From: a virus
Virus record (IMG/VR): IMGVR_UViG_3300025887_000083
Location: 1 to 32,989 of that record
Reading direction: 5' to 3' (one strand)
DNA length: 32,989 nt
The position numbers and the translations under genes are program-made. The number at the start of each line of letters is the position of its first letter. Positions within the stretch are counted from its first letter, which is position 1. Below the pieces are notes generated by a model. The model saw nothing but the letters and a program-made list of their open reading frames with translations. It searched no databases and was not told the DNA's origin. Below are positions 24,635 to 27,281 of this stretch, piece after piece.

Positions 24635-24646
24635 TGTTTGTACAAA
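24625..24646. promoter_or_regulatory. Twin palindromic operator between divergent promoters
   Basis: TTTGTACAAA, a perfect 10-bp palindrome, occurs at 24625-24634 and 24637-24646, 12 bp apart centre to centre, close to one helical turn. The first copy holds the -33 box of the leftward promoter and the second that of the rightward promoter, so one bound regulator could control both directions. No regulator is identified. Confidence 0.7.
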
Positions 24647-24666
24647 GTAATTAATTACTATATTTG
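24637..24666 (+). promoter_or_regulatory. Rightward promoter of the plus-strand block
   Basis: TTTG (24637-24640), an 18-bp spacer and TATATTTG (24659-24666), 18 bp before the ATG at 24685. It is the only convincing plus-strand promoter I find and would drive the whole block to ~26860. Confidence 0.75.
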
Positions 24667-24684: not shown

Positions 24685-24981
24685 ATGAAAACAGAACAAA
24701 GAGAATTTGAAGTAAAATTAACCCCAGCAAATGAGTTAATACTTGATAGGTGGGATAAAGACTGGCGCGATCTTCACGAATTACAAGGAAATAAAAATAC
24801 TCTATTGCTGGATATTTCAGTTGAGGAAAATTTCGGAAGTGATTACGGTACTATTGACGAATACGGAAGGTGTGAAAGTATTAAAGTGTTAAATCATACA
24901 GCGTATTTTGACCAAGAAGGAAACGAACTAGAAAGCGAAATGATTGATATATTAGATTTGCCTTGTGGTTTTATTGGCTAA
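24685..24981 (+). CDS. Highly acidic 98-aa protein, first gene of the plus-strand block
   Basis: I choose the ATG at 24685 (MKTEQREFEVKLTPANELIL); an upstream TTG in frame lies inside the -7 box. The protein has 23 Asp/Glu against 9 Lys/Arg, spread along its length, with phrases DRWDKDWRDLHEL and GNELESEMIDILDLPCGF. No family recognised. Such strong acidity is typical of DNA-mimic inhibitors of restriction or repair, but that is only a compositional hint. Its stop codon lies within the start of the first hairpin element (GGCTAACG). Confidence 0.7.
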   Translation: MKTEQREFEVKLTPANELILDRWDKDWRDLHELQGNKNTLLLDISVEENFGSDYGTIDEYGRCESIKVLNHTAYFDQEGNELESEMIDILDLPCGFIG

Positions 24982-25043
24982 CGTCTCTTGTAAGATTTCG
25001 TTTTTGCCTTTTTCGGCAAATATGAATTTTACACATTGTTACC
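24976..25043. repeat. Cassette-boundary hairpin element 1
   Basis: Left arm starts GGCTAACGTCTCTTGTAAG and right arm ends TTTTACACATTGTTACC. The inner stem TTTGCC / GGCAAA (25003-25020) is perfect around a TTTTTC loop, and the outer arms pair imperfectly, with TAAC facing GTTA. There is no U-tract after it in either useful direction, so it is not a normal terminator. It resembles elements 2 and 3. Confidence 0.55.
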
Positions 25044-25079
25044 TGACTGGTGCGATTTATAATAACAAAACTTTGAATA

Positions 25080-25688
25080 ATGAACGACTTTAGTTTTAAT
25101 AATTTTTTTGAGCGTAGGCGAATTAGTAATGCACGATCTAAAATAGACTACAATACAGAACTTTATACCCAAAATGATAATGCGGAATTTGGAAAGTTAG
25201 ATATGCTTGTTACCGATGAATTAATAAGCCTATGTAAAAACTCAAAACACATAATAATTTACGGACACGCTAAAAGTGGAAAAGTTATTTTAGGTAGGTT
25301 ACTTTCTGAAAAAATTGGCTGTGATTTAATTGTTTCTGACGATTATATGTATTTAGGATGGTCTGACAATATGTATCATATAAAAGAATTATTACAATCG
25401 AAACATAAAGATCAACAAATAATTTTTGAAGGTGTACAAACTTGTAGATTATTGCGTAAGGGTGTTCAATTAAATGATTACTATCCGGAATTAGTAATAC
25501 ACGTTACTTGTAACTACAAAAGTATTGAGCAATGTTACTGGAATGATAACGAGCAACACAAATTAAAAGGTGGTAAAGTAAAAAGGTTTAATGAAAAAAT
25601 ACTTGATAAAATATTTTACGAGTGGTGGGATATGCTTCCAAAAGAAAAACGACCTAAAATTATAAATATAGACACAAGTTTTATTTAA
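25080..25688 (+). CDS. P-loop protein, possible small-molecule or nucleotide kinase
   Basis: A 202-aa protein. After a basic N-terminal ~45 residues comes a P-loop fold: HIIIYGHAKSGKVILGRLL, with the Walker A sequence GHAKSGKV at 62-69. The usual final Ser/Thr of GxxxxGK[ST] is Val69, so phosphate binding may be altered. VSDDYMYLGW follows, with D87/D88 where kinases have an acidic residue, then IIFEGVQ near 115 and a C-terminal helix ending KIINIDTSFI. It is oriented opposite to most of the genome. Confidence 0.7.
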   Translation: MNDFSFNNFFERRRISNARSKIDYNTELYTQNDNAEFGKLDMLVTDELISLCKNSKHIIIYGHAKSGKVILGRLLSEKIGCDLIVSDDYMYLGWSDNMYHIKELLQSKHKDQQIIFEGVQTCRLLRKGVQLNDYYPELVIHVTCNYKSIEQCYWNDNEQHKLKGGKVKRFNEKILDKIFYEWWDMLPKEKRPKIINIDTSFI

Positions 25689-25750
25689 AGTAAAAAAGAT
25701 TTACCAAGATGGTTGAAATTAGCAATAGTAATTTACGAAAAATTAAAATA

Positions 25751-25942
25751 ATGGATAAATACACACTTTACTACACAACGGAAATGATAAGATATTCTGA
25801 AATGATAAAAAATAGCACAGGAATTTCTAAAACTGAAAAAATTAACCTAATTGATAGTATGATCAATCATTTAAAAAAGGGAAGGGAAAAAGTTGTTAAA
25901 ACGGATGATAAGCACGAAACTTCAAGTTTAGCACAAGTTTAA
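25751..25942 (+). CDS. Small helical protein in the plus-strand block, 63 aa
   Basis: I choose the ATG at 25751 (MDKYTLYYTTEMIRYSEMIK), giving 63 aa; an in-frame ATG at 25709 would add 14 residues. The protein is helical and basic, ending KHETSSLAQV. No family recognised. It lies behind the P-loop gene in the same unit, with no hairpin element between them, and its stop is 9 bp before element 2. Confidence 0.55.
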   Translation: MDKYTLYYTTEMIRYSEMIKNSTGISKTEKINLIDSMINHLKKGREKVVKTDDKHETSSLAQV

Positions 25943-25951
25943 GCACTTGTA

Positions 25952-26008
25952 GGTAACGCTGAGTATATGGCAGTATGGCGTAGCCTATGTGCTATATACA
26001 ATGTTGGC
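25952..26008. repeat. Cassette-boundary hairpin element 2
   Basis: Left arm GGTAACGCTGAGTATATGGC and right arm GCTATATACAATGTTGGC pair imperfectly (TATATGGCA against TGCTATATA is the clearest run), with an inner ATGGC / GCC(T)AT stem around a GTA loop. It begins 9 bp after the stop of the 63-aa gene and ends 27 bp before the next ATG. TAAC and GTTG/GTTA at the outer ends recall the AAC / GTT ends of integron attC sites, though the seven-base boxes do not match fully. Confidence 0.6.
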
Positions 26009-26035
26009 AACAGTACGGATTTAAAAAGATAAATT

Positions 26036-26806
26036 ATGATAAAAGTAAATAGCATTTCAGGCGGTAAAACATCAGCATTTATGGCACTAAACTATCCTGC
26101 GGATATAGAACTTTTTGCACTTGTATGTATCGAAGCTGAATATTGCAAACCAAAAGATAAATCAATAGTGAAGTACGTTTCTGATAAGATAGGGCGTGAT
26201 TTTGTAGCAACTGCTGAAAGTGATAAAACCTTATATGTAGTTCGTGATTTAGAGCAACTATTAGGTAGGGAAATTAAATGGGTAGTTGGTGATACGTTTG
26301 AACAAATTACTAAGCGTAAAAATGGCTATTTCTTGCCAAACATATTTAATAGAATGTGTACTACTGAAATGAAAATGAAGCCTATTTTTGATTATTGCCA
26401 AAAAGAAGTTGGTGAGATTGTAGAAATGCAAGTTGGTTTTAGATATGATGAAAAAGAACGTGGCGAAAGAAATAAGACTAATACCAAATTTAAAACGATT
26501 GTAGGGCAAAGCGAAAATGGTAGAAATAAATGGGATGAAATTGAATGGAGAACATTGGCTTTTCCTTTGATAGAAAATAAACAAAGCCATTTTGAAGTTT
26601 ACAAGTGGTCACAAAGTAGCGGAATAAATTTCCCTGCTGATTCTAATTGTGTTGGATGTTTTCACAAACCTTTTCAGCAGTTGCGTAAAAACTGGGATAA
26701 TGAGCCACAGAAGATGAGATGGTTTGCGGAAATGGAAAAGAAAGCAAAAGCACAATGGAAGAAAGAAATGAGTTATGCAAGTACAAAAAAAATTGGATTG
26801 CAATAA
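26036..26806 (+). CDS. PP-loop (PAPS reductase-like) protein, C-terminus cut by in-frame TAA
   Basis: A 256-aa adenine-nucleotide alpha-hydrolase-fold protein. The PP-loop SGGKTS is at residues 8-13 (MIKVNSISGGKTSAFM), followed by RMCTTEMKMKPIFDY around 106-120 and a cysteine pair in NCVGCFHKPF (C205, C208, H210). Phage relatives are annotated as PAPS reductases, but their substrate is generally unknown; roles in sulfur or DNA/RNA modification are proposed for the fold. After the TAA the same frame continues for 17 codons, DFFFGTGSGCQAGFCTD, then TAG at 26858-26860. That looks like the true conserved C-terminus with a second cysteine pair. Confidence 0.85.
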   Translation: MIKVNSISGGKTSAFMALNYPADIELFALVCIEAEYCKPKDKSIVKYVSDKIGRDFVATAESDKTLYVVRDLEQLLGREIKWVVGDTFEQITKRKNGYFLPNIFNRMCTTEMKMKPIFDYCQKEVGEIVEMQVGFRYDEKERGERNKTNTKFKTIVGQSENGRNKWDEIEWRTLAFPLIENKQSHFEVYKWSQSSGINFPADSNCVGCFHKPFQQLRKNWDNEPQKMRWFAEMEKKAKAQWKKEMSYASTKKIGLQ

Positions 26807-26867
26807 GATTTCTTCTTTGGTACTGGTAGCGGATGTCAGGCTGGGTTCTGTACAGATTAGTATTAAT

Positions 26868-26891
26868 GCTAACGCATTGTGTATGGCATCG
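26868..26891. repeat. Cassette-boundary element 3, half copy
   Basis: TAACGCATTGTGTATGGCA (26870-26888) matches the left arm of element 2 (TAACGCTGAGTATATGGCA) and starts 9 bp after the TAG at 26858-26860. No right arm follows before the lysis genes, so the element appears truncated at the junction. Nothing else is seen in 26892-26906. Confidence 0.5.
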
Positions 26892-26906
26892 TTTTAATGT
26901 GCGAAA

Positions 26907-27281
26907 TCACTTTTGAATGTAAATTAACCCTCCTAAAATTGCAGCCGCTGAACCAAATGAAATGCAGCCAATTTTTAAAAGTTTATTACCTCGTTTTAAC
27001 CGGTTGATTGATTTGTCTTTTGATTGGATTAGTTCCCGGTAGTAAACTTCTTTTTCTTGGTGGATTACTTCTTTTTCCTTAAACCTAAATAAAGCCTCGT
27101 TTTGCGCCTTAATAGCTTGGTCTTGTTGTTCTATCCTTTGCGCTCGGTTTAATAGCATAGAATCGCAATAAATAGCCTTAATTTGCGACTTTCTTATTGA
27201 CTTTAGTTCGTCAATTGTGAATTGCCCTTTTAATGATATTGATAAGGCTGTCAGAATTACTAATAGTATCGACGTTTTCAT
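26907..27281 (-). CDS. Spanin-like lysis protein, 124 aa
   Basis: I choose the ATG at 27281 (MKTSILLVILTALSISLKGQ): it begins an obvious signal peptide, while the open frame upstream lies inside the neighbouring gene. After the signal comes a long helix (~25-100) suited to span the periplasm and then a C-terminal hydrophobic segment (IGCISFGSAAAILGGLIYI). No lipobox cysteine is visible. The arrangement resembles a spanin, which fuses inner and outer membranes at the end of lysis. It overlaps the upstream membrane-anchored gene by 71 bp in another frame, as Rz1 does with Rz. Confidence 0.6.
   Translation of the reverse strand: MKTSILLVILTALSISLKGQFTIDELKSIRKSQIKAIYCDSMLLNRAQRIEQQDQAIKAQNEALFRFKEKEVIHQEKEVYYRELIQSKDKSINRLKRGNKLLKIGCISFGSAAAILGGLIYIQK

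What the first reader, a model, noticed from the sequence alone, without database searches (positions are those of the whole stretch)
24685..26891. Plus-strand gene block built like an integrase-less cassette array
Seen: this is the only plus-strand block. It has one good promoter, and each of its three units (98-aa; P-loop plus 63-aa; PP-loop) ends within about 10 bp of an element beginning TAACG. Elements 1 and 2 are long imperfect hairpins whose ends read TAAC and GTTA/GTTG; element 3 shares TAACGC...GTATGGCA with element 2. Known: integron cassettes are single genes followed by an imperfect-palindrome attC with AAC/GTT ends, read from one promoter. Inference: host-derived cassettes, moved by an integron-like or folded-single-strand mechanism, may have entered this phage. 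The seven-base attC boxes do not match the classical consensus, so this may be a Bacteroidota-specific variant.
Basis: partly seen in the sequence, partly recalled or inferred. Interest (0 to 1): 0.75.

Follow-up and report, generated by a model that had tools for sequence, protein, structure and literature searches.

The report
Phage integron with hairpin-first gene cassettes
This phage carries a short row of swappable gene cassettes bounded by DNA hairpins, part of an apparently undescribed Bacteroidota integron family, and sequenced isolates of a marine phage that carries the same kind of array differ by gain and loss of exactly such cassettes.

Summary
The block is a small integron-type cassette array without its own integrase, in a Bacteroidota phage. 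(1) Against a close relative (L226), DNA identity stops at the first element's AACG (24983) and resumes at 26890, with different cassettes between. (2) The two ends of each cassette are complementary to each other, not to the neighbour. (3) Hairpin arms covary strongly. (4) Related arrays in Bacteroidota chromosomes lie beside a tyrosine recombinase forming its own clade; it lacks the IntI-specific insertion. (5) Five phages (Freya, Leef, Ingeline, two metagenomic) carry a recombinase of that clade beside such elements. Seven Freya isolates, 0-4 SNPs apart over 42.6 kb, differ by whole cassettes (up to 4.9 kb), every breakpoint at AAC.

The hairpin lies 5' of its gene, travels with it in Freya, and in 51 of 83 phage cassettes holds the start codon. 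Phage CALINs are published (Qi 2023); I found no account of this recombinase family, the inverted polarity or the Freya cassettes. No assay was run. The window's last cassette looks partly decayed (premature stop, mismatched ends, truncated hairpin).

The parts
24637..24666 (+). Promoter-like sequence, TTTG (24637-24640) - 18 nt - TATATTTG (24659-24666), resembling the Bacteroidota -33/-7 consensus
   Evidence: read by eye; consensus from own knowledge; near-identical sequence in relative L226; not tested
24685..24981 (+). Anchor gene, 98 aa; its stop codon overlaps the R''-type end GGCTAAC. No matching GTT end upstream, so it is the fixed left border and not a full cassette
   Evidence: identity with L226/L227 runs up to 24983 and stops
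24980..25040 (+). attC-like element 1: AAC (24980-24982), hairpin 24983-25037, GTT (25038-25040)
   Evidence: training member of model R1, so its E-value is not independent
24983..25957 (+). Cassette A: hairpin 1 + R' GTTACCTGACT (25038) + genes + R'' TTGTAGGTAAC (ends 25957)
   Evidence: R' and R'' pair over GTTACCT/AGGTAAC; body present in a different phage, L228, with other hairpins and other neighbours, homology ending at 25958
25080..25688 (+). P-loop-like protein, 202 aa (weak AAA_18 match only)
   Evidence: 89% identical relative in L228
25709..25942 (+). Small protein, 77 aa (63 aa from ATG 25751), same cassette
   Evidence: homologous stretch in L228
25955..26005 (+). attC-like element 2: AAC (25955-25957), hairpin 25958-26002, GTT (26003-26005)
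   Evidence: also a training member of R1
25958..26873 (+). Cassette B: hairpin 2 + R' GTTGGCAACAG + PP-loop gene + R'' TTAATGCTAAC (mismatched to its R', probably decayed)
   Evidence: relatives with matching ends in L003 (GTTGGCAACA/TGTTGCCAAC) and L004 (GTTGGCGGTA/TACCGCCAAC)
26036..26806 (+). PP-loop protein, 256 aa, related to phage PAPS-reductase family phrog_424; premature TAA, frame continues to TAG 26858-26860
26868..26903 (+). Truncated element 3 / right border (GCTAACGCATTGTGTATGGCATCGTTTTAATGTGCG), followed at 26907 by the stop of a convergent phage gene
   Evidence: identity with L226 resumes at 26890

Best explanation
The block is a CALIN-type array (attC sites without integrase) of a Bacteroidota integron family. 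Each unit is hairpin + gene(s) + AAC end. A tyrosine recombinase of the array-associated clade, supplied in trans here by the host or a co-infecting phage, is inferred to bind the hairpin folded from one DNA strand and to cross over within AAC, so that cassette circles enter and leave between the anchor gene and the right border. Shown: homologous blocks end at the elements; end-to-end complementarity inside cassettes; hairpin covariation with fixed strand asymmetry; linkage to the recombinase; whole-cassette differences between near-identical isolates of another phage with AAC breakpoints. Inferred: single-strand substrate, the identity of the enzyme that acted on this phage, and read-through of the genes from the promoter before the 98-aa gene.
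For: Swap at the boundaries. Freya isolates: F1 empty, F2 = F1+842, F5 = F2+902, F6 = F5+472, F10 = F9+307, F10 = F8+902 internally; overlaps at the breakpoints 3-11 nt; 0-4 SNPs elsewhere. Danklef isolates: 781-bp methylase cassette present or absent, overlap 4 nt. Cassette ends agree at 7 of 8 scored positions in 66/110 pairs against 1.2 expected, and only 2/110 within one element; viral set 49/109 at 6 or more against 3.3. Covariation; strand-neutral count 181 G.T against 42 A.C. Recombinase loci hold 39 elements per 268 kb, Xer loci of the same genomes 4 per 342 kb. Phage recombinases beside elements, one clade. Polarity.
Against: No recombinase in this record, which may be a fragment. Element 2 alone folds no better than shuffles. 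Cassette B ends do not match. The P-loop body occurs elsewhere with different hairpins on both sides, so hairpins and bodies can be separated by a route that simple AAC crossover does not explain. Only 20 of 34 genomes with short-class elements also have the recombinase (hand tally, p = 7e-4).
Confidence: 0.9

Rival explanations
1. The elements are ordinary hairpins (terminators or mRNA structures), and gene swaps arise by homologous recombination between repeated hairpins.
For: Phage genomes are mosaic; hairpins of one genome can be 80-90% alike.
Against: Breakpoints share only 3-11 nt, mostly AAC; neighbouring hairpins in the window and in Freya are unrelated in sequence; ends of one cassette co-vary 800 bp apart; arrays sit beside one recombinase clade.
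Confidence: 0.05
2. Classical integron CALIN mobilised by a canonical IntI.
For: Same cassette logic; Qi 2023 (PMC9892861) showed that P12002L_attC2 recombines with IntI1, and P12002L carries this element family around its methyltransferase genes, although I could not match their exact site.
Against: Recombinases beside these arrays score 96-196 bits on TIGR02249 (cut-off 265) with a gap at the IntI-specific region, against 394 bits for a true IntI; the tree separates them from IntI and Xer, moderate support 91/94; R' boxes are GTTRNS, not GTTRRRY.
Confidence: 0.12
3. HUH/Y1 single-strand transposition (IS200/IS605- or IS91-like) moves the units.
For: Hairpin ends; related tyrosine recombinases also occur on proteobacterial plasmids.
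Against: No shared transposase gene among 15 recombinase neighbourhoods; circular R'/R'' pairing and tandem arrays are not features of those elements (own knowledge).
Confidence: 0.02

Closest known systems
Integrons (IntI/attI/attC), including CALINs
   Same: Tandem cassettes; imperfect-palindrome sites with AAC/GTT cores; R' of a cassette pairs with its own R''; insertion at an end next to the recombinase; strand asymmetry of the folded site
   Different: Recombinase lacks the IntI insertion and is its own clade; short sites carry two near-fixed G.T pairs; R box GTTRNS; in phages the gene is inverted so that attC is 5' and often holds the start codon
Phage CALINs of Qi et al. 2023 (PMC9892861)
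   Same: Integrase-less attC arrays in phages, methyltransferase cassettes; Polaribacter phage P12002L holds this very family
   Different: In the parts I read, no recombinase family of this kind, no polarity rule and no cassette variation between isolates is reported; existing attC tools were used
XerA-like tyrosine recombinases (NCBIfam NF040815)
   Same: Best NCBIfam model of the array recombinases tested (146-236 bits)
   Different: Mostly below its cut-off of 220; linked to arrays, several with an N-terminal extension of about 100 aa

Membership tests
Integron cassette array / CALIN | Two or more attC-like sites bounding short cassettes | tested here: met
   Window: two full sites and one half-site; other phages with up to about 27
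Integron cassette array / CALIN | 5' end of cassette complementary to its own 3' end | tested here: met
   window cassette A met, cassette B not
Integron cassette array / CALIN | attC fold conserved by covariation with strand asymmetry | tested here: met
Integron cassette array / CALIN | R' box GTTRRRY (classical consensus) | tested here: not met
   GTTACCT, GTTGGCA in the window; GTTRNS in general
Integron cassette array / CALIN | Precise cassette gain and loss at core sites | tested here: met
   Natural isolates Freya and Danklef; boundary swap window/L226; not assayed in vitro
Complete integron | intI gene in cis | tested here: not met
   No PF00589 in the window record
IntI family (for the recombinases found beside related arrays) | Curated TIGR02249 score and IntI-specific insertion | tested here: not met
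   96-196 bits against cut-off 265, gap in the model's 181-238 region; IntI control 394 bits
Integron | Recombination of the single-stranded folded bottom strand | not testable with these tools
   Needs a conjugation assay with each strand

The most novel reading that the evidence does not exclude
Bacteroidota phages own a separate integron lineage with its own recombinase clade, in which the gene is inverted inside the cassette. The attC hairpin comes first and often brings start codon and N-terminal leader, so a phage operon can grow by ready-to-translate cassettes, and does so between near-identical isolates. What was annotated as a lysogeny integrase is, at least in Freya, a cassette integrase.
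Probability: 0.75. Interest if true: 0.9.

Novelty: new variant of a known kind. Interest (0 to 1): 0.85.

Why it matters
It adds a large, overlooked integron family: in a sample of 296 Bacteroidota genomes about a third carry the array-type recombinase and 15% a short-class site, yet IntegronFinder 2.0 reported complete integrons in this phylum as rare (PMC9024848). It offers isolated, cultivable phage-host pairs (Freya) in which cassette capture, including a methylase cassette in sister phage Danklef, can be followed directly, and a natural experiment on which strand and which side of attC defines a cassette.

Tried and rejected
Rfam: no match. tRNA: none. Blastn of the block against named phages: none. 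PP-loop relatives in genomes: none. Loose attC pattern over 296 genomes: mostly chance hits, replaced by model R1. First thought that the hairpin belongs to the upstream gene, as in textbook cassettes: rejected by the Freya indels. Test of which hairpin travels, from repeated chromosomal cassettes: left better in 10, right in 2, but nearly all from one genome, so weak. Fold-energy strand bias from my scored finder (139:21) is biased by its G.T scoring; only the strand-neutral count is used.

Full report
What is in the window. The record is a 33-kb phage genome or fragment (portal, terminase, capsid, methylases) whose main genes run on the minus strand except for one plus-strand block. That block holds a 98-aa gene, a P-loop gene with a small ORF, and a PP-loop gene related to phage PAPS-reductase proteins. 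Two complete elements lie at 24980-25040 and 25955-26005 and a half element at 26868-26903. Folding alone is weak evidence.

Boundaries. Relatives of the PP-loop gene in viral contigs L003 and L004 lie in long same-strand arrays of short genes with the same kind of element at the junctions. Phage L226/L227 shares the window's left flank (93-97% identity) and right flank (92%), but DNA identity ends at 24983, just past AAC, and resumes at 26890; between them lie different genes and different hairpins. Cassette A's body recurs at 86-87% identity in phage L228 among other neighbours, homology ending at 25958 just past GGTAAC.

Cassette logic. In an integron the first bases of a cassette pair with its own last bases, because both come together in the circle. 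I scored 8 positions beyond the core in 110 neighbouring element pairs: 66 agree at 7 and 19 more at 6, against 3.3 expected at 6 or more when partners are shuffled, while the two sides of one and the same physical element agree at random. A viral set gives 49/109 at 6 or more against 3.3 (it overlaps the first set in part). In the PP-loop cassette the two ends changed together, GTTGGCAACA/TGTTGCCAAC in L003 and GTTGGCGGTA/TACCGCCAAC in L004.

Structure. Thirty short elements give 91.4% paired cells, 87 both-side changes (28 expected; 0/500), covariation 0.51 against 0.14, and two positions that are G.T in 27 of 30. Scored without favour to either strand, G.T exceeds A.C 181 to 42 (95 against 7 elements): one strand folds better than its complement, as in attC. 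Window elements 1 and 2 were in the training set, but the L226, L228, P12002L, Leef and Freya elements were not, and their best hits score E = 1e-8 to 3e-5.

Recombinase. A 22-base pattern hit 59 stretches in 84,980 genomes, about 54 in Bacteroidota by record title. In those genomes a tyrosine recombinase lies at the array's end, with 39 elements in 268 kb around 15 such genes (10 of 15 loci; most of the others end at a contig break) against 4 in 342 kb around 20 Xer-type genes of the same genomes. It matches TIGR02249 in two parts with a gap where IntI has its insertion, below the cut-off; a phage-borne IntI control scores 394 bits. In a tree of 27 proteins chromosomal and phage array recombinases group apart from IntI and Xer (91/94, moderate) and the five phage ones form a clade (96/91). 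In 296 sampled Bacteroidota genomes about 94 have this recombinase (E up to 1e-70, my tally) and 34 a short-class element at E up to 1e-3 (my tally); 20 have both (Fisher p = 7e-4).

Phages. The recombinase is absent from 21 of 23 array-bearing virus records, the window included, but present beside arrays in a 266-kb record and a 59-kb record, and beside elements in the isolated phages Freya and Leef (arrays) and Ingeline (one weak element). Relative to element polarity, phage cassettes carry the gene on the same strand (74 same, 2 opposite), chromosomal ones on the other (7 and 75; p = 5e-34). In phages the hairpin therefore precedes the gene; in 51 of 83 the longest ORF starts inside the hairpin, against 6 of 75 in chromosomes. 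Those starts have an A-rich stretch at -13 to -11 (76-87% A) and 34 of 51 read GTT as valine, so they look like real starts; this is not tested. The window's own cassette genes have start codons after GTT.

Mobility. Seven sequenced isolates of Polaribacter phage Freya differ by 0-4 SNPs over 42,594 bp outside one site. At that site, upstream of the integrase gene, they differ by 0 to 4,942 bp: F1 is empty, F2 has an 842-bp unit, F5 adds 902 bp, F6 adds 472 bp, F10 adds 307 bp to F9, and F8 equals F10 without the 902-bp unit. Every breakpoint lies at AAC, with 3-4 nt of overlap mostly and 11 at most. The inserted unit starts with the hairpin and ends in AAC, which fixes cassette polarity. Danklef isolates show the same for a 781-bp methylase unit, although the Danklef integrase is truncated. 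The authors of these genomes read the integrase as a sign of temperate potential; the words cassette and variable region do not occur in the main text (PMC8776804).

What is known and what differs. Phage CALINs are published, including Polaribacter phage P12002L, where one attC recombined with IntI1 in E. coli (PMC9892861). I find this family's elements, in phage polarity, across that phage's methyltransferase region but could not match the tested site. I found no paper on the recombinase family, on inverted polarity, or on the Freya cassettes; the library held lacks most subscription papers and all preprints.

Limits. No assay was run. The genome loci were chosen by one short-class pattern. 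Polarity counts use cassettes that passed an end-agreement filter, which is blind to gene direction. Only 7 of 10 Freya isolates were compared. The window's cassette B is partly decayed, and why bodies can change hairpins (L228) is unexplained.

Noticed in passing
window 26804-26860: PP-loop gene has a premature TAA; the conserved C-terminal stretch DFFFGTGSGCQAGFCTD continues in frame to TAG, so the gene of the last cassette is probably broken.
   Followed up: partly
L106, L109, L111, L112, L115 (about 1-6 kb upstream of the recombinase): A divergent ORF of 120-132 aa with a CxxC...C zinc-finger-like N-terminus accompanies 5 of 15 chromosomal recombinases.
   Followed up: no
chromosomal array recombinases (L103, L105, L106, L107, L109, L113, L115, L117): N-terminal extension of about 100 aa or more, longest in L106, absent from the phage recombinases; possible extra DNA-binding arm.
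   Followed up: no
L237/L238 (record G321, 71 kb): At least 27 short-class elements in one phage record without a tyrosine recombinase, a very large phage cassette array.
   Followed up: partly
L253-L257 (Polaribacter phage Danklef): Integrase reduced to a C-terminal part, yet isolates differ by a methylase cassette: a helper recombinase may act in trans.
   Followed up: partly
window 26889-26898, L226 6378-6480, L228 6240, L004 3585: Minimal apical loop CGTTTTAATG recurs in the smallest elements, including near-empty ones with almost nothing between R' and R''.
   Followed up: no
L003 4035-4200: Nested elements: an inner and an outer GTTGCAG end share one left arm, suggesting one site inserted into another.
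   Followed up: no
L040: A 3.7-kb contig binned with a Cyclobacteriaceae genome has phage-type polarity in its cassettes; probably phage DNA.
   Followed up: no
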